42,792 nt of DNA from Dietzia cercidiphylli. Lineage in GTDB: Bacteria > Actinomycetota > Actinomycetes > Mycobacteriales > Mycobacteriaceae. The notes beneath the pieces are model-generated. The model was not told where the DNA came from. It made no database searches and worked only from the letters and a program-made list of their open reading frames with translations. The stretch is taken from positions 1 to 42,792 of the forward strand of contig NZ_JAALEA010000022.1 of assembly GCF_014145145.1 (NCBI RefSeq), read 5' to 3'. The translations under genes were made by a program, and so were the position numbers. Shown here in pieces: positions 1-42,792 of the stretch. How positions within the stretch are numbered: position 1 is the first letter of the stretch; the number at the start of each line of letters is the position of its first letter.

Positions 1-26
1 TTGGTAGAGCTACGGACTTTTAATCC
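1..26. repeat. attL core (26-bp direct repeat with attR)
   Basis: These 26 bases are identical to 42767-42792. They correspond to the D-loop through the anticodon stem of a tRNA-Lys gene, including the anticodon loop CTTTTAA. The sequence after base 26 (ATAGTCCC) does not continue the tRNA, so the tRNA 3' half is absent on this side and the base after the core is phage DNA. The core also lies inside the open frame of the repressor gene on the minus strand. Host DNA should begin just left of base 1. Confidence 0.92.
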
Positions 27-314
27 ATAGTCCCCGTTGTTGCCCCCGCTCGGCCCGCCCTGGTGGGGGCCGTTGCTTTCTAGGCCGAGGGTCCACCAGG
101 CGGGCACTTTCCATCGCAACTGCACGCGCTTAGCGATCGCCACCTCATCGGCGACGGCGTTGCGACCGGTCTCCCACGCGTTGTAGGTGGACTCCTTCAC
201 GCCGAGTTCCACGGCGAACTCGTGCTGCGTGAGTTTGAGGTCGCGCCGAATCCGGCGCAGACGGTCGCCCGTAGTCATGTGTGGGATGAAGTCCCCGCTC
301 AGTTCGGTGTTCAT
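1..314 (-). CDS. Cro/CI-type immunity repressor, frame open through attL
   Basis: Helix-turn-helix XRE-type repressor that would silence early lytic promoters and maintain lysogeny. The HTH occupies about residues 17-72 (RLRRIRRDLKLTQHEFAVEL, then ESTYNAWETGRN), followed by a Gly/Pro/Asn-rich tail. The start at 314 is supported by a TTGACA/TAGGGT promoter whose predicted +1 is the A of this ATG; Met13 is an alternative start. The frame has no stop between 314 and the window edge: 104 codons are visible, the last nine or so lying in the att core. In the circular phage the frame would continue at 42766 for 23 more codons to a TGA at 42697-42699, giving 127 aa ending QAVAA. In the prophage the C-terminus is set by host DNA outside the window. 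The gene is divergent from xis. Repressor identity is inferred from HTH, position and orientation. Confidence 0.85.
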   Translation of the reverse strand, partial: MNTELSGDFIPHMTTGDRLRRIRRDLKLTQHEFAVELGVKESTYNAWETGRNAVADEVAIAKRVQLRWKVPAWWTLGLESNGPHQGGPSGGNNGDYGLKVRSST

Positions 315-360: not shown

Positions 361-439
361 TATGGAAACGTACGCGTGTCGGCTTGACCCGATACGGATG
401 CGTATGCCACGGTATGCACATGGCCGATACGGATACGTA
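361..439. promoter_or_regulatory. Three operator-like 12-bp inverted repeats
   Basis: Three related sites lie in the rep-xis intergenic region and the start of xis: TATGGAAACGTA (361-372), TACGGATGCGTA (393-404) and TACGGATACGTA (428-439). Sites 2 and 3 are perfect TACG-N4-CGTA palindromes and site 1 has one mismatch. Starts are 32 and 35 bp apart, about three helical turns. They are the best candidates for repressor (or Cro/Xis) binding sites. A -35-like TTGACC (384-389) lies between sites 1 and 2, but no convincing -10 for the rightward early promoter is visible. Confidence 0.55.
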
Positions 440-614
440 CTCAGGAGACGAACTCCTCACCCCGGCGCAGGCCATCGCCGTTGCGCACATCTCAAAGTCG
501 ACCCTTCTCCGCGCCGAAGGGGCCGGGAAGATCGCGCCCCTCCGCACACCTGGGGGGCACCGACGTTACCGACGTGCGGACGTCGAAGCTCTGCTCTCTC
601 ACCCTGCCGCATAA
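420..614 (+). CDS. xis: MerR/BldC-like HTH protein, probable excisionase (Xis)
   Basis: Small DNA-binding protein of about 64 aa with the BldC/excisionase-type winged HTH: LLTPAQAIAVAHISKSTLLR, then the signature TPGGHRRY. Such proteins act as recombination directionality factors that bend att DNA and make integrase excise. Its position, divergent from the repressor and first in the rightward operon, fits Xis or a Cro-like switch protein. No Shine-Dalgarno precedes either ATG (414 or 420), so the mRNA may be leaderless. The TTG at 384 would add a peptide unlike the family. Candidate operator 3 lies inside the first codons. The protein ends SHPAA, an ssrA-like -AA tail. Confidence 0.75.
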   Translation: MADTDTYSGDELLTPAQAIAVAHISKSTLLRAEGAGKIAPLRTPGGHRRYRRADVEALLSHPAA

Positions 615-670: not shown

Positions 671-1426
671 GTGTCAGATCATACCGGGACTCTCGTCCCG
701 TTCAACTACGGCGACGTGCAGGTGCGCGTCGTCACCGTCGAAAGCGAACCGTGGTTCGTGCTCGCCGACCTCGCCCGCGTGCTGGAAATCAGCGACGTGA
801 GCCGTCTCGCCTCCCGCCTTGACGATGGGGTGCGCCAGACGCACCCCATCCGGGATGCCCTCGGTCGCTTGCAGAACGCGACCATCGTGTCCGAGTCGGG
901 CATGTACGAGGTCGTCATCCGCTCCGACAAGCCGGAAGCCGCCGCGTTCCGTCGCTGGATCACCGGCACGGTGCTCCCGGAGATCCGCCGCACTGGCTCC
1001 TACTCCCCCGCGCCGGCCTTGCCGGTCGATCGGACCGAGCTGCTGGCGCGCGCTGTGCTCGAGGCGACTGCCGCGCTCGAGGAGAAGGAGGCGCACATTC
1101 GCGAGCTCGCGCCGCGGGCGGCGGTGGCGGACGAGCTGATGGACGCGACCGGCCTGCTCAGTCTCCAGGAGCTGGCCAAGGCGCTGGGTTGGGGTCCGAA
1201 CATCCTGTTCCGTGATCTCCGCCGTCTCGGGGTGCTGCAGTCGAACCGGCTGCCGTACCAGCGGTACGCGCACCACTTCGAGGTGAAGCTCGGCACCTAC
1301 AGGCATCCGAAGACGGGCGAGACGATGCCGACCCACCGCCCGTACGCGCGGCCGTCCGCCATCCCTTTCTTCCGCCGCAAGCTCGCGGGCCTGGAGCAGT
1401 CTCTCGATCTCGAGGTGGCGTCATGA
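671..1426 (+). CDS. Phage antirepressor, Bro-N plus KilAC-type domains
   Basis: 251-aa DNA-binding protein of the phage antirepressor family. Residues 1-110 form a Bro-N domain (PFNYGDVQVRVVTVESEPWF, then ALGRLQNATIVSESGMYEVV and FRRWITGTVLPEIRRTGSY). Residues 125-240 resemble the KilAC/ANT C-terminal domain (LMDATGLLSLQELAKALGWG, then YQRYAHHFEVKLGTYRHPKT). Family members inactivate repressors or modulate early transcription. The start is a GTG at 671. Its place right after Xis in the early operon suggests a role in the lytic decision or induction. Its stop overlaps the next ATG (ATGA). Confidence 0.88.
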   Translation: MSDHTGTLVPFNYGDVQVRVVTVESEPWFVLADLARVLEISDVSRLASRLDDGVRQTHPIRDALGRLQNATIVSESGMYEVVIRSDKPEAAAFRRWITGTVLPEIRRTGSYSPAPALPVDRTELLARAVLEATAALEEKEAHIRELAPRAAVADELMDATGLLSLQELAKALGWGPNILFRDLRRLGVLQSNRLPYQRYAHHFEVKLGTYRHPKTGETMPTHRPYARPSAIPFFRRKLAGLEQSLDLEVAS

Positions 1427-10906: not shown

Positions 10907-11027
10907 CGAGCACAAGGCGGCGGCCGAGCAGTCCCTGCTCGACGCGTGGGGTGCCGCAGACCCCACTCCGGAACTACTGCGTGGCCTCGTGCACGCCGTA
11001 CTCGCAACCATCAAGGAGACATCGTGA
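10896..11027 (+). CDS. Small hypothetical protein
   Basis: 43 aa (TSDEHKAAAEQSLLDAWGAA start). Predicted as two helices. Its stop overlaps the GTG of rtcB (GTGA), so it is translationally coupled to the RNA ligase and may act with it. No family recognised. Confidence 0.5.
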   Translation: MTSDEHKAAAEQSLLDAWGAADPTPELLRGLVHAVLATIKETS

Positions 11028-12199
11028 CCACTCAGCTCGCCCCGAACGTCCTCTCGTGGGCAACCCACATTGACCAGACCACCATTGACCAGGCGGTGGC
11101 CCTCGCTGGTCTGCCGTTCATCCACCCGCACATCGCGCTCATGCCCGACGCCCACGCCGGTAAGGGCTCCGCCGTCGGCACCGTCATCCCGACCGAGGGC
11201 GCGGTCATCCCCGCCGCGGTCGGCGTCGACATTGGGTGCGGCATGATCGCGGCTCGAACCCGATACACCGAGGCCGACCTCGAGCGCATCGACCTGTCCG
11301 AGCTGCGGGACCAGGTCGAGCGCGCCATCCCGTTGTCGCCGGGCAACTACAACAGCCGCGTGCACCACGACCACACCCATGATCGGGTCGCCGAGCTCGA
11401 AGCGCTCGCAGAGAGGAACGAGGTCGACCTGTCTCACTCTCCGAAGTGGCGTGAGCAGCTCGGCTCCCTCGGCGGGGGCAACCACTTCATCGAGCTGTGC
11501 CTCGACGAGACGGGCGCCGTCTGGTGCTTCCTGCATTCCGGGTCGCGGGGCGTCGGCAACAAGATCGCGCAGAAGCACATCAAGATCGCCCAAGCCTTGT
11601 GCAAGCGGTGGCACATCCAGCTCGCCGACCGGGACCACGCCTACCTCCCGCAGGGCACTCCGGAGTTCACCCGGTACTTGACGGAGCTGCACTGGGCGCA
11701 GACGTTCGCGCGGCTGAACCGGGACGAGATGATGGACCGGTTCCTGGACCAGCTCGCCCGCCTGTTCGGCGACGACGACGCCGGCGAGACTGAGCGGGTC
11801 AACTGCCACCACAACTACACCGAGACCGTCCAGGTCGGCGGCCGGAAGGTGTGGCTGACCCGCAAGGGCGCCATCGACGCCACCGAGGGCCGGATGGGGT
11901 GCATCCCCGGAAGCATGGGTACCCGCTCGTACATCGTGCGCGGCAAGGGCAATCCGTCGGCGCTGTTCTCCGCACCGCACGGCGCGGGCCGGGCCATGTC
12001 CCGCACGCAGGCCCGCAAGCGGTTCACCGCGGCCGACCTGGACGAGGCTATGCGCGGCATCGTGTACCGGCCTGGTGACGAGTGGGTCGACGAGATCCCG
12101 GCCGCCTACAAGGACATCGACCAGGTGATGGAGGACGCGGCCGATCTGGTCGAGGTCGTGCACGAGCTGCGCCAGGTGATGAACGTCAAGGGCACGTAG
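11024..12199 (+). CDS. rtcB: RtcB 3'-phosphate/5'-hydroxyl RNA ligase
   Basis: 391-aa GTP- and Mn-dependent RNA ligase that joins 2',3'-cyclic phosphate or 3'-phosphate ends to 5'-OH ends. Metal and catalytic motifs are all visible: VGVDIGCGM with Asp69 and Cys72, GGGNHFIEL with His154, HSGSRGVG with His171, CHHNYTE near residue 262, IPGSMGT, and SAPHGAGR with His319 as the likely guanylated histidine. Length is normal for the family. No Archease gene is next to it. In a phage the likely substrate is tRNA or other RNA cut by host anticodon nucleases. The end is followed by 136 bp without a clear gene, except a possible 15-aa ORF at 12289-12336. Confidence 0.95.
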   Translation: MTTQLAPNVLSWATHIDQTTIDQAVALAGLPFIHPHIALMPDAHAGKGSAVGTVIPTEGAVIPAAVGVDIGCGMIAARTRYTEADLERIDLSELRDQVERAIPLSPGNYNSRVHHDHTHDRVAELEALAERNEVDLSHSPKWREQLGSLGGGNHFIELCLDETGAVWCFLHSGSRGVGNKIAQKHIKIAQALCKRWHIQLADRDHAYLPQGTPEFTRYLTELHWAQTFARLNRDEMMDRFLDQLARLFGDDDAGETERVNCHHNYTETVQVGGRKVWLTRKGAIDATEGRMGCIPGSMGTRSYIVRGKGNPSALFSAPHGAGRAMSRTQARKRFTAADLDEAMRGIVYRPGDEWVDEIPAAYKDIDQVMEDAADLVEVVHELRQVMNVKGT

Positions 12200-39932: not shown

Positions 39933-40853
39933 GTGCAGCAGGCTACCGCTGCGCGCCCTGTGCGCGCGCCTATTCCCCCCGTGTTCGACACCCTCGATCT
40001 GTTGGTCGAAGGGTTCGTGGCCCGCTTCTCGTCGGAGTCCACCCGCACCGCCTACGCCGGCGACCTCGCCCTGTGGCGCTCGTGGTGCGATGAGCAGGGC
40101 CTGGACGTCCTCGCCGTCGAGCGGGCCCACGTCGAGCTGTTCGCCCGCTGGCTCGAGACCGCGCGCGGCAACTCCCCGGCCTCGGTGCACCGTCGGCTGG
40201 TGTGCCTGCGGTCGTTCTACCGCACGATGGCCGCCGACGGCCGGATCCTCGTCTCACCCGCCGAGTACGCCCGCCTGCCCAAGATCCGCCGCGACCGCAC
40301 CCAGTACACGCACATCACCCGCGGGGAACTGTCCACGCTGCTCGTCGCGGCCGACGACATCAGCCCCACGGCCGGCGCACTGGTCTCACTCATGGGCGTC
40401 CTCGGTCTGCGGGTCTCGGAGGCGTGCGCCCTGGACGTCGACTGCGCCGACCGTCACGAGCGCGGCCACCGCATCCTCACCGCCCACGGCAAGGGCGCCA
40501 CCGTCACCGGCATCCCCGTCCCGGTCCCCGTCGGCCGCCGCATCGACACCGCCCGCGGCGACCGCCCCACCGGTCCGCTGCTGCTCCGCCGCGACGGCTC
40601 CCGCATGACCCGCCGCTCGGCGGCCCGCGTCGTCACAGCGGCAGCCAAGGCCGCCGGGATCGACAAGCACATCAGTCCGCACGACCTGCGTGCCGCGGCG
40701 ATCACGTGCGCGCTCGACTCGGGGATCCCGTTGCGGGACGTGCAGACGATGGCCCGCCACGCTGACCCGCGGACGACGGAGATCTACGACCGTGGCCGGC
40801 GGGACATCGACCGGCACGGCGCTTACATCCTCGCCTCGTACCTCGCGGCCTGA
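39933..40853 (+). CDS. Second tyrosine recombinase
   Basis: 306 aa. Core-binding domain at residues 15-110 and catalytic domain with Arg160 (LGLRVSEA), Lys187 (HGKG), His250-x-x-Arg253 (HDLR), His276 (RHADPRTT) and nucleophile Tyr285 (EIYDR). The HADPRTTEIYDR box is typical of plasmid and mobile-element recombinases of actinobacteria rather than of tRNA-integrating phage integrases. It lies in a cassette bounded by terminators. It ends ASYLAA, very close to an ssrA degron. Possible roles are dimer resolution, a second integration mode or a moron. Confidence 0.88.
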   Translation: MQQATAARPVRAPIPPVFDTLDLLVEGFVARFSSESTRTAYAGDLALWRSWCDEQGLDVLAVERAHVELFARWLETARGNSPASVHRRLVCLRSFYRTMAADGRILVSPAEYARLPKIRRDRTQYTHITRGELSTLLVAADDISPTAGALVSLMGVLGLRVSEACALDVDCADRHERGHRILTAHGKGATVTGIPVPVPVGRRIDTARGDRPTGPLLLRRDGSRMTRRSAARVVTAAAKAAGIDKHISPHDLRAAAITCALDSGIPLRDVQTMARHADPRTTEIYDRGRRDIDRHGAYILASYLAA

Positions 40854-40909: not shown

Positions 40910-41470
40910 TCAGTACGCCTGGGTGGCGCCGTACTCGGCCTGCTCCGGGGTGAACTTCTCGAACTGCAGTTGGTCGACCAGGCCCTGGCGGGACATCGGG
41001 GTCATCTCCATGTACTGCTCTGCCTTCTTCGCGGCTTGCTCGTTCCAGTCGGCATCGACGTTCTCGACGGCGTACTGAGCGGCCTCGGGGCTGTACTCCT
41101 CGAATTGGAGCTGCTCGGCTAGGCCCTGCTGGGAGAACGCGGACACGCTCAGGTAGCGCTCGGCGGCGCGGAGGGCGTTCTGGTGCTCCCGCGGTACCTC
41201 TGGCTCTGCGGGCTCGGGCTCCGGCTCGGGCTGCTGCTCATCGGTGGGCGCCGCCGTGTCTGCGGCGGGTTGCGTCGTGGTCGTCTCCGCGGGCGCCACG
41301 CCTTCCTCGTCGTCGCCACCGCCGGCGATGCTGGCGATGAGCGCGATGAGGATCAGGGCGCCGACGATGATCGCGCCCCACTTCATGCAGCCGCCCCGCT
41401 TCTTCTTCGGCTGGTCCTGGGGCGGGTAGGGCTGGCCGGGCTGCTGGGGCTGGTACTGCGGGTTCGTCAC
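40910..41470 (-). CDS. Ltp-like membrane protein, probable superinfection exclusion
   Basis: 186 aa from the GTG at 41470, which follows GGAAGG by 6 bases. Gln/Pro-rich cytoplasmic start, one transmembrane helix at 30-50 (WGAIIVGALILIALIASIAG), an acidic Pro/Glu linker, then two tandem repeats of the Ltp family (ERYLSVSAFSQQGLAEQLQF and EQYMEMTPMSRQGLVDQLQF, residues about 97-186). Ltp of Streptococcus phage TP-J34 blocks DNA entry of other phages. Here the Cys before the helix is in GGCMKW, not a clear lipobox, so it is anchored by the helix. Probably expressed in the lysogen. Confidence 0.82.
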   Translation of the reverse strand: MTNPQYQPQQPGQPYPPQDQPKKKRGGCMKWGAIIVGALILIALIASIAGGGDDEEGVAPAETTTTQPAADTAAPTDEQQPEPEPEPAEPEVPREHQNALRAAERYLSVSAFSQQGLAEQLQFEEYSPEAAQYAVENVDADWNEQAAKKAEQYMEMTPMSRQGLVDQLQFEKFTPEQAEYGATQAY

Positions 41471-41487
41471 GTCGAGCCTTCCGTCGG

Positions 41488-41514
41488 GTTCACATATTCT
41501 TATCAGGTGTGAAC
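41488..41514. promoter_or_regulatory. Palindromic operator-like site upstream of the Ltp gene
   Basis: GTTCACA and TGTGAAC form a perfect 7-bp inverted repeat separated by 13 bp. The spacer holds GATAAGAATA on the minus strand, a possible -10 for the Ltp gene 18-20 bases upstream of its start. It is in the 49-bp gap between int and Ltp. It does not match the repeats at 361-439, so a different regulator is implied. Confidence 0.55.
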
Positions 41515-41519
41515 GACAC

Positions 41520-42434
41520 TCACGCCGCATTGGGCTGAGGTGGCGCGCCCCACGGGTCGAGTCGGTCGATCGCTTCCCGCCGCATCGCATCGGGCAGCTG
41601 GGTGTAGATCGCGGTGGTGGCGACGTTCTCGTGCCGCAGTAGATCCCGTACGAGGTAGATGTCGGCGCCGTCGGCGAGGAGCTGCGTCGCGAAGTAGTGG
41701 CGGAGCCGGTGCGGGGTGCCGGCGACCCCGCACCGGCGCATGTGGTCGGAGATGGTGCGGGACACGCTTTTGGCCTGAACGGGATCGGACGGGAACTGGC
41801 GGGACGGGAACCACCAGCCGCGGTCGGGCATCCGGCGGGACCAGTCCGCCACCATCGGGTGCAGGGGGAGCTCGGCGGGTTTCTTGCCCTTGCCCTTCAC
41901 GTACAGGACTTGTCTGTCGCGGTTGATGTCTTCGCCTCGCAGTTTCGCGATCTCGTGGACTCGCAGACCTTGGAGGGCGGCGAGCAGGATCATGGCGTGG
42001 GTGGTCATGCGCGTCGGTGCGGACAGGAGCATCTGCACGTCGCGGGCGGACACCGGGCGGGGTAGTCGCTTCGGGGCGCGGGGTCGGCCGACCTTGGTCA
42101 TCGGGTTGTCGACGCGCCGGTCTTGGACGTTCAGCCACTTGTAGAAGGCTGTGAGGCAGGCGACGTAGTTGACAATGGTGGAGTCGGACCAGGTGTCGTG
42201 TGAGGCGATCCATCGGGTGATGTCGATGGGTTGGGCGTGGGCTGGTTGTATGCCGGTTTCGCGGTAGAACTGGGCGAGGATGCGGCGTCGTTCGGTGATG
42301 GTGCGCTCAGACAGGCGGCTCGACACTTGCCACAGCTCGAAGTCGTCGAGGTGGACCAGAGGAATGGGGGGCATGTCAGCATCGTCACGAACCGCCACGA
42401 GAGTGGGGCCGGTGTTGCCTCCGCGTGATGTCAT
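41520..42434 (-). CDS. int: Tyrosine integrase of the prophage
   Basis: 304 aa. Core-binding domain (residues 30-125) and catalytic domain with Arg158 (QGLRVHE), Lys182 (VKGKGKK), His242-x-x-Arg245 (HRLRH), His268 (LLRHENVATT) and Tyr277 (AIYTQ). It recombines attP with the tRNA-Lys attB. It lies next to attR and overlaps the upstream 89-aa gene by ATGA, so it belongs to the rep-orf89-int operon of the circular genome and loses that promoter on integration. It ends PQPNAA, again an -AA tail. Confidence 0.93.
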   Translation of the reverse strand: MTSRGGNTGPTLVAVRDDADMPPIPLVHLDDFELWQVSSRLSERTITERRRILAQFYRETGIQPAHAQPIDITRWIASHDTWSDSTIVNYVACLTAFYKWLNVQDRRVDNPMTKVGRPRAPKRLPRPVSARDVQMLLSAPTRMTTHAMILLAALQGLRVHEIAKLRGEDINRDRQVLYVKGKGKKPAELPLHPMVADWSRRMPDRGWWFPSRQFPSDPVQAKSVSRTISDHMRRCGVAGTPHRLRHYFATQLLADGADIYLVRDLLRHENVATTAIYTQLPDAMRREAIDRLDPWGAPPQPNAA

Positions 42435-42700
42435 TGTTGTACTACAGGTGTGTGATTCAGGATCGCCTCAGCGTCCCGGACTCGCCCCAAGGCCTCGGTG
42501 ATGCAGTTGGCCTTGTGTCGCATCAGCGAAGCCCCGGCGTAGTTGCCGCGCTCGTCGAGGAACTCGGCATCGCGGCGCATCTCCACCAGGAGTCGGTCGA
42601 GTTCGTTGTGCGCGTGGCGTAGGTCGTGTCCGGCGAACTCGCGGTCGACCTTGGCCTGGATCGCGGCGTCCCGGGTGGGTTCACTGAGCGGCGCACTCAT
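42431..42700 (-). CDS. Unknown 89-aa protein between repressor and integrase
   Basis: 89 aa (SAPLSEPTRDAAIQAKVDRE, then HDLRHAHNELDRLLVEMRRD), helical, charged, no motif recognised. Its ATG (42698-42700) overlaps the TGA that ends the repressor frame only in the attP arrangement, and its own TGA overlaps the int ATG. In the prophage its upstream DNA is the antisense of tRNA-Lys, so it should be silent. A role in the integration/immunity switch is inferred from position only. Confidence 0.75.
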   Translation of the reverse strand: MSAPLSEPTRDAAIQAKVDREFAGHDLRHAHNELDRLLVEMRRDAEFLDERGNYAGASLMRHKANCITEALGRVRDAEAILNHTPVVQQ

Positions 42701-42711
42701 GCCGCCACCGC

Positions 42712-42743
42712 CTGACGGCGCATCGGGACCACGTTGCTATCCT
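42712..42743 (+). promoter_or_regulatory. Candidate phage-supplied promoter for tRNA-Lys
   Basis: TATCCT (42738-42743) lies 7 bases before the tRNA 5' end at 42751. The only -35-like hexamer is CTGACG (42712-42717) at 20-bp spacing. If integration is as read here, the tRNA rebuilt at attR must be driven from this phage DNA. Confidence 0.4.
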
Positions 42744-42750
42744 CGATCAC

Positions 42751-42792
42751 GCCCCTATAGCTCAGTTTGGTAGAGCTACGGACTTTTAATCC
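42751..42792 (+). tRNA. tRNA-Lys(TTT), 5' part, cut by window edge
   Basis: GCCCCTA acceptor strand, TA, D-stem GCTC/GAGC with loop AGTTTGGTA, then anticodon stem ACGGA and loop CTTTTAA with anticodon TTT, and TCC beginning the other stem strand. The 3' half lies outside the window in host DNA. Bases 42751-42766 are inside the prophage, so the phage appears to supply the 5' end. Confidence 0.9.
42767..42792. repeat. attR core (26-bp direct repeat with attL)
   Basis: Identical to 1-26. Here it continues a tRNA 5' half and should run on into the tRNA 3' half of the host. Crossover lies somewhere within these 26 bases, most likely near the anticodon loop, the usual site for tyrosine integrases. 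Confidence 0.92.

What the first reader, a model, noticed from the sequence alone, without database searches (positions are those of the whole stretch)
1..314. Integration-dependent immunity: attP lies inside the repressor gene
Seen directly: the minus-strand repressor frame from ATG 314 has no stop before the window edge and passes through the 26-bp att core. Joining the ends through the core (as in the circular phage) continues the same frame from 42766 for 23 codons, to TGA at 42697-42699. That gives a 127-aa viral repressor ending QAVAA, while the prophage form is cut after about codon 104. Known: in mycobacteriophages BPs, Brujita and Charlie, attP within rep makes a long unstable viral repressor and a short stable prophage repressor, so immunity depends on integration. 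This prophage has the same logic with a different insertion gene (tRNA-Lys).
Basis: partly seen in the sequence, partly recalled or inferred. Interest (0 to 1): 0.95.

Follow-up and report, generated by a model that had tools for sequence, protein, structure and literature searches.

The report
Immunity switch hidden in tRNA frameshift
This prophage's repressor gene contains the site where the phage joins the chromosome, so integration swaps a long repressor with a destruction-tag-like tail for a short one; the switch is a known kind, but here it rests on one extra base in a phage-supplied front half of the host's lysine tRNA gene.

Summary
Host contigs that overlap both window ends show a prophage in the tRNA-Lys(TTT) gene of a Dietzia-group bacterium. 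Joined through the 26-bp core, the repressor reads 127 aa, ending QAVAA. In the prophage it reads 105 aa and stops at a TGA in host DNA. By sequence this is integration-dependent immunity. The adjacent integrase is 48-51% identical to phage Charlie's. Other members of the kind also use tRNA-Lys, so the target gene is not new.

What differs is which half of the tRNA the phage carries. A 2022 review says these cores must contain the tRNA 3' end. This phage, and a second prophage in the genus, carry the 5' half plus a promoter-like hexamer. Their copies have one extra D-loop base, at different places. The form without it is in 23 of 23 genus genomes; a pattern for the two extra-base forms hits 2 of 401 family genomes, these two prophages. 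That base carries the viral frame past the host's TGA, whose letters are complementary to tRNA residues 12-14.

Instability of the long form and immunity from the short form are inferred from the family, not tested here.

The parts
3..314 (-). Repressor gene rep, the part shared by both forms (104 codons; HTH_3)
   Evidence: prophage form runs one codon plus TGA into host contig C553
1..26 (.). att core, rep-side copy; in the chromosome it is attL with C553
42767..42792 (.). att core, int-side copy; in the chromosome it is attR with C118
42697..42766 (-). 3' end of the viral form of rep (stop TGA 42697-42699); tail ends QAVAA
42751..42792 (+). Phage copy of the tRNA-Lys(TTT) 5' half, from nucleotide 1 into the anticodon arm
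   Evidence: ARAGORN on joined attR: tRNA-Lys, 77 nt; attB 76 nt; attL none; letters
42766..42768 (+). TTT where hosts have TT: the extra D-loop base that shifts the viral rep frame past TGA
42738..42743 (+). TATCCT, -10-like hexamer 7 nt before tRNA nucleotide 1; genus hosts have TATCGT, TAGTGT or TATTGT there
   Evidence: promoter function inferred
42431..42700 (-). Small ORF (89 aa) between rep and int, joined by ATGA overlaps on both sides
   Evidence: no Pfam or PHROG match at E 0.001
41520..42434 (-). Tyrosine integrase of the Charlie family, ends PQPNAA
315..419 (.). Divergent rep/xis-like intergenic region with near-direct repeats 389-404 and 424-439 (the second lies in the xis-like gene); possible operators
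   Evidence: operator role inferred
420..614 (+). Small excisionase/regulator-like gene, divergent from rep
   Evidence: phrog_66, E 1.7e-5
671..1426 (+). Antirepressor-like gene (Bro-N + ANT)

Best explanation
It is an integration-dependent immunity module of a Dietzia-group temperate phage at tRNA-Lys(TTT). In the infecting, circular phage, rep is read antisense through the core, the phage copy of the tRNA 5' half and its promoter-like region, giving 127 aa with an ssrA-like tail (QAVAA) that probably marks it for proteolysis. The integrase (..PNAA) follows downstream, probably in the same operon (ATGA overlaps). When the integrase recombines attP with attB, the rep side is joined to the host tRNA 5' half. 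That half lacks one D-loop base, so rep reads ..ACC AAC TGA and stops at 105 aa without a tag. This form is presumably stable and repressive. The int side is joined to the tRNA 3' half, and the phage-supplied 5' half rebuilds a 77-nt tRNA-Lys there. Shown: both frames, the tRNA loss and repair as ARAGORN reads it, the single-base difference, and that the two extra-base forms were not found outside these prophages. Inferred: degradation of the long form, activity of the short form, operon, use of the phage promoter.
For: Host junctions at both ends, 127/105 aa forms, and tRNA-Lys found in joined attB and attR but not in attL or attP. Integrase 51% identical to Charlie's over 92% by tblastn, 48% in the multiple alignment. 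Two more prophages in the genus at the same tRNA: G016 gives 101/123 aa ending REAAA, G002 gives 101/125 aa ending REIAA. Host tmRNA tag is ADTNQRDYALAA. Among related loci, 20 of 27 distinct tail reads end AA, 3 VA, 4 otherwise. The extra-base pattern hits 2 of 401 family genomes, these two prophages; the normal copy is in 23 of 23 genus genomes and 81 of 101 family genomes. Of 208 single-base edits of host tRNA positions 1-26, 61 open the frame: 8 substitutions, each at positions 12-14, and 53 insertions; no deletion does. Hence an insertion in the variable D loop is an easy way past the stop that spares the D stem and A14 (tRNA numbering recalled). -10-like hexamers sit at the same distance in both phage copies. 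G016's restored tRNA scores 69.4 bits in Rfam against 69.9 and 70 for two uninterrupted tRNA-Lys genes; its attL remnant scores 33.7, still above the family cut-off of 29.
Against: No stability or immunity data. The open tail is not unlikely by itself. The extra T is not independently confirmed within this assembly, because the two contigs that carry it overlap there. Only two elements of the 5'-half kind were found, so generality is unknown. Repressor relatives are remote and not uniform: none of 55 phage records covers 80% of the query; UmaThurman (49% over 76%) ends EQIPA, Elesar (57% over 67%) is only 81 aa, and Brevibacterium AGM1 (42% over 76%) is 155 aa ending VDAK. Within the genus the repressors are not close: G002 30% over residues 7-93, G016 no match at E 0.001. 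Integrase tags are not universal: Charlie's and Phrann's end AVS and VAS. BPs and Brujita could not be compared: two BPs accessions were not found, Brujita was not tried, and the 2013 paper is not held.
Confidence: 0.85

Rival explanations
1. attP lies in rep for historical reasons only. Both forms are stable and repress, so integration changes the protein but not immunity.
For: The HTH domain (residues about 16-64) is intact in both forms, and BPs long and short forms bind DNA alike (PMC4557955, passages incl. abstract). Some repressor relatives lack an AA tail.
Against: AA-ended viral tails in the three genus prophages and 20 of 27 tail reads, and on the integrases of the three genus prophages and 4 of 6 named phages. 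The one-base insertion keeps the long frame open in two phages at different positions.
Confidence: 0.1
2. The extra D-loop base is neutral drift in a tRNA copy, and the open long frame is a coincidence.
For: One of three phases through this stretch is open, and the tail beyond stays open in 69% of shuffles.
Against: Both 5'-half prophages have exactly one added base, at different positions. A pattern for these two forms found no copy outside them in 401 family genomes; other insertion forms were not searched. The stop after the shift falls on an ATGA gene junction in both.
Confidence: 0.1
3. The terminal repeat is an assembly overlap of a circular contig, and there is no chromosomal prophage.
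For: The window is a whole contig with a 26-bp terminal repeat.
Against: Contigs C553 and C118 carry host-phage junctions with opposite tRNA halves. G016 shows the same arrangement on one 153-kb contig.
Confidence: 0.02
4. The prophage is defective and its 105-aa repressor does nothing; another gene confers immunity.
For: A superinfection-exclusion-like gene lies at 40910-41590. An excisionase/regulator-like gene (phrog_66) lies at 420-614.
Against: I gave PHROGs 35 ORFs or parts of ORFs out of 286 listed at 60 aa or more; apart from rep none hit a repressor family, while antirepressor, terminase, portal, protease, tail and lysis genes are present. Most small ORFs were not scanned.
Confidence: 0.08

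Closest known systems
Integration-dependent immunity of mycobacteriophage BPs (gp33 136/103 aa)
   Same: attP within rep, longer viral and shorter prophage form, tRNA attB, ssrA-like tag, rep and int transcribed together, stop created at the host junction (PMC4557955 and PMC9262239, passages)
   Different: BPs uses tRNA-Arg with a 35-bp core holding the tRNA 3' end, and a changed third codon base makes the TGA. Here the core is in the 5' half and a one-base length difference decides. BPs sequence not found in the collections under two accessions.
Charlie and other cluster N phages
   Same: Integrase 51% identical (tblastn; 48% in the alignment); tRNA-Lys-like sequence antisense in rep; rep viral tail DSAA
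   Different: Charlie carries the tRNA 3' half; its integrase ends AVS, not AA; Mycobacterium phages are absent from the 55 records with a match to the window's repressor
Gordonia phage UmaThurman (gp36)
   Same: Repressor relative with the best E-value (49% over 76%); predicted integration-dependent immunity (PMC4929511, read whole)
   Different: tRNA-Arg, 3' half inside rep; tail ends EQIPA
Gordonia Jeanie, McGonagall, GMA5, GRU3
   Same: Reported attP for a tRNA-Lys attB; such immunity systems reported in the cluster; GMA5 has an extra ORF between int and rep (PMC5559632, passages)
   Different: 37-bp core; which tRNA half it covers was not checked here
Dietzia alimentaria prophage (G002)
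   Same: Same tRNA-Lys, integrase 75-77% identical, viral tail REIAA
   Different: Carries the tRNA 3' half; prophage stop is TAA read across the anticodon loop. Its two ends lie on different contigs, so its attP is my join.

Membership tests
Integration-dependent immunity | attP core inside the rep reading frame | tested here: met
Integration-dependent immunity | Longer viral form with ssrA-like C-terminus | tested here: met
   127 aa ending QAVAA; host tag ends YALAA; sequence only
Integration-dependent immunity | Shorter prophage form ended by host sequence | tested here: met
   105 aa, TGA in host tRNA DNA
Integration-dependent immunity | rep upstream of a tyrosine integrase on the same strand | tested here: met
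   an 89-aa ORF lies between, as GMA5 is reported to have
Integration-dependent immunity | Integrase with C-terminal proteolysis signal | tested here: inconclusive
   Ends PQPNAA; Charlie's own ends AVS; proteolysis not testable
Integration-dependent immunity | attB overlaps a tRNA gene that is rebuilt on integration | tested here: met
   ARAGORN on joined attB and attR; G016 attR by Rfam
Integration-dependent immunity | Common core contains the tRNA 3' end (as the 2022 review states) | tested here: not met
   Core is D loop to anticodon arm; the phage supplies the 5' half. I read this as a variant: the review derives the feature from the need to keep the tRNA working, which is met here by the other half. 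If the 3' end is held to define the family, this is not a member but works like one.
Integration-dependent immunity | Long form unstable, short form gives immunity | not testable with these tools
   needs experiment
Integration-dependent immunity | No arm-type integrase sites | not tested
   not searched
tRNA-dependent lysogeny | Integration destroys the host tRNA and a phage tRNA gene replaces it | tested here: not met
   tRNA is rebuilt at attR; ARAGORN finds no complete tRNA gene in the window

The most novel reading that the evidence does not exclude
A 5'-half class of integration-dependent immunity exists in which the lysis-lysogeny switch is a one-base length difference in a tRNA D loop. 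The stop codon is complementary to constrained tRNA residues 12-14, so the phage avoids it by adding a base at a variable D-loop position. One short stretch of phage DNA serves at once as att core, tRNA 5' half, tRNA promoter and degron-coding sequence. The class may have arisen twice: the two insertions differ in place, and the 5'-half (G016) and 3'-half (G002) integrases are closer to each other (83%) than either is to the window's (73% and 75%).
Probability: 0.7. Interest if true: 0.68.

Novelty: new variant of a known kind. Interest (0 to 1): 0.6.

Why it matters
The published account says these attachment sites must hold the tRNA 3' end, which limits where the switch can sit. This case shows the opposite half can do the job, with the phage apparently supplying the front of an essential tRNA gene and probably its promoter, and with a single base separating the two repressor forms. 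It gives a sharply testable case of one DNA stretch under tRNA, recombination and protein-coding constraints, and a simple predictor (tRNA half plus frame) for finding more such prophages.

Tried and rejected
Circular-contig artefact: rejected because of the host junctions. tRNA-Lys as a new target: rejected.

Evidence for free attP molecules in the sample: the two 34-base overlaps at the window ends look like assembly-graph branches at attL/attP and attR/attP. The far-end 34-mers of C553 and C118 each occur only once in the genome, so the graph reading stays inconclusive and is not used.

First tRNA-half survey: its D-arm pattern failed on the window itself when I ran a control. Redone, where the window and G016 attP give a D arm and no T arm, and G002 a T arm and no D arm. 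Of 112 fetched integrase loci (80, the best 80 of 144; 32; copies of one phage were not removed) 25 were dropped for having under 500 bases upstream. Of the remaining 87, 61 have an antisense T arm within 600 bases and 4 a D-arm match. Of the 4, I read three (L097, L159, L164) as the host tRNA-Glu gene that one search places there and one (L161) as probably chance; L161 was not followed. The D-arm finder caught 22 of 29 real tRNAs, the T-arm finder 29 of 29, so 5'-half cases could be missed.

The tail count used 34 of the 61 T-arm loci, those with an ORF of at least 90 aa through the arm, giving 27 distinct tails. Related phages share descent, G002 itself is among them (L157), and some reads are probably chance ORFs.

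The promoter scan found no consensus site in 20-700. A terminator-like hairpin inside the rep reading frame was folded: clear in G016, not the lowest-energy fold in the window; not pursued. 20 of 101 family genomes lack the exact normal tRNA pattern; I did not look at what they have.

Literature: 'integration-dependent immunity' listed 19 of 19 papers. Further searches listed 15 of 82, 13 of 13, 12 of 101, 4 of 4, 0 and 10 of 122. From titles and abstract starts I saw no 5'-half attP in rep; most papers were seen only in the listing, and the longer lists were capped. Read as passages: PMC4557955, PMC9934374, PMC9635641, PMC10865867, PMC9262239, PMC5559632 (plus section 8). Read whole: PMC4929511. 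The two 2013 founding papers are not held, so a prior description is not excluded.

Full report
CHECK. The window is a complete contig (C144, 42,792 bases) of a fragmented genome, and 26 bases repeat at its two ends. Two other contigs carry the host sides. C553 ends with host DNA, the first half of a tRNA-Lys(TTT) gene, and then window 27-34. C118 (reverse complement) begins with the last 34 bases of the window and continues with the second half of the tRNA. Joined flanks give an empty site with a 76-nt tRNA-Lys. The int-side junction (attR) gives a 77-nt tRNA-Lys; ARAGORN finds none in attL or attP. So the window is a prophage inserted in tRNA-Lys.

THE TWO REPRESSORS. rep starts at ATG 314 on the minus strand and has an HTH_3 domain. 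Through the core as in the circular phage it reads 127 aa ending ..KVRSSTKLSYRGVIEDSNVVPMRRQAVAA. In the chromosome it reads 105 aa ending ..KVRSSTN. The viral stop TGA overlaps the start of an 89-aa ORF as ATGA, whose own stop overlaps the integrase start as ATGA, as expected of one operon (inferred). Integration would also part int from the rep promoter (inferred). The integrase ends PQPNAA. The host's tmRNA tag is ADTNQRDYALAA.

WHAT DECIDES THE STOP. rep runs antisense to the tRNA. The host copy reads ACC AAC TGA; the phage copy has one more T in the D loop and reads ACC AAA CTG AGC. The TGA is complementary to tRNA positions 12, 13 and 14 (D stem and A14; structural roles recalled). Of 208 single-base edits of positions 1-26, 61 open the frame: 8 substitutions, each at positions 12-14, and 53 insertions; no deletion does. 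A D-loop insertion is therefore an easy escape that leaves the tRNA fold intact. The normal copy is present in 23 of 23 genus genomes; two of these are the attL halves of the window's host and of G016. A pattern that covers the two extra-base forms hits 2 of 401 family genomes, the window's and G016; other insertion forms were not searched. The exact normal pattern is in 81 of 101 family genomes; the other 20 were not examined.

OTHER PROPHAGES IN THE GENUS. An integrase search of 301 family genomes hit 18, three of them in the genus: the window's host, G002 and G016. G016 has a prophage on one contig at the same tRNA with the same core. Its phage copy also has one extra T, but after the GG (20a rather than 17a; numbering recalled). 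Its repressor forms are 101 aa (..TDYGLKVRSSTN) and 123 aa (..SSNQLSYRGEEHGSTVRDLFQREAAA), and its viral stop also overlaps a start codon as ATGA, here of a 22-aa ORF whose end overlaps the integrase start region. Its ends lie on two contigs; joined they give 101 and 125 aa (..REIAA), and the prophage stop is TAA from the antisense of the anticodon loop. The repressors themselves are not close: G002's is 30% identical over residues 7-93 and G016's gave no match at E 0.001. The integrases of G016 and G002 are 83% identical, and the window's is 73% and 75% identical to them, so the half carried seems to have changed within this clade; no tree was built.

THE tRNA REPAIR. Both 5'-half phages place a -10-like hexamer (TATCCT; TACCGT) 7 nt before the tRNA; the 22 other genus loci have TATCGT in 18, TAGTGT in 2 and TATTGT in 2. 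So the phage probably supplies a promoter too (inferred). For G016 the rebuilt tRNA scores 69.4 bits in Rfam and its attL remnant 33.7, against a cut-off of 29. The window's own rebuilt tRNA was scored by ARAGORN only.

WIDER COMPARISON. 403 phage records match the integrase at 1e-10; the 40 listed are Mycobacterium and Gordonia phages, Charlie among them (51% over 92%; 48% in the alignment). The repressors of Charlie, Phrann, Dogfish, Meyran and WST1 hold an antisense tRNA-Lys-like 3' half; UmaThurman's holds a tRNA-Arg 3' half. In 87 related loci (of 112 fetched), 61 have an antisense T arm near the integrase and 4 a D-arm match, which I judge to be host tRNA-Glu genes (3) or chance (1). Of 27 distinct repressor-tail reads, 20 end AA, 3 VA and 4 otherwise; this set includes G002 itself, and some reads may be chance ORFs. 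Against a uniform picture: UmaThurman's tail ends EQIPA, AGM1's VDAK, Elesar's repressor is 81 aa with no long tail, and Charlie's and Phrann's integrases do not end AA.

WHAT IS KNOWN. [quoted passage not shown] A 2022 review states that the common core must contain the tRNA 3' end and that in BPs a changed third codon base creates the stop (PMC9262239, passages). A 2024 paper says the common core typically includes the tRNA 3' half (PMC10865867, passages). About half of the 27 Gordonia phages with an identified attP core are reported to show such systems, and tRNA-Lys is among the targets (PMC5559632). The window is therefore a variant of a known kind.

LIMITS. No function was tested. An open tail is not rare by chance (69% of shuffles), while an AA end is (0.8%). 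The extra T rests on overlapping contigs of one assembly, and G016 supports the logic, not the letter. Two examples do not make the class general. The founding 2013 papers and the BPs genome were not available.

Noticed in passing
window 39933-40853 (+): A second tyrosine recombinase (24% identical over 242 residues to the att-side one), ending YLAA; 115 phage records match, 64 Gordonia and 47 Arthrobacter.
   Followed up: partly
window 40910-41590 (-): Gene matching superinfection-exclusion families phrog_4980 and phrog_15667, beside the integrase.
   Followed up: no
window 10946-12199 (+): RtcB-type tRNA splicing ligase (phrog_1075, E 1.1e-156), of interest in a phage that parasitises a tRNA gene.
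   Followed up: no
window 57-70, and L071 just inside the core: Terminator-like hairpin just inside the prophage (clear, with a T-run, in G016; weak in the window), pointing away from the host's leftover tRNA-Lys promoter at attL and lying within the rep reading frame; it could stop antisense transcription into rep.
   Followed up: partly
L082, about 2310-2387: ARAGORN calls a tRNA-Thr across the attP region of a contig of Charlie's length, probably a chimera of phage DNA and the tRNA-Lys 3' half.
   Followed up: no
L161: Mycobacterium MAG locus with a D-arm-like match 195 bases upstream of a related integrase.
   Followed up: no
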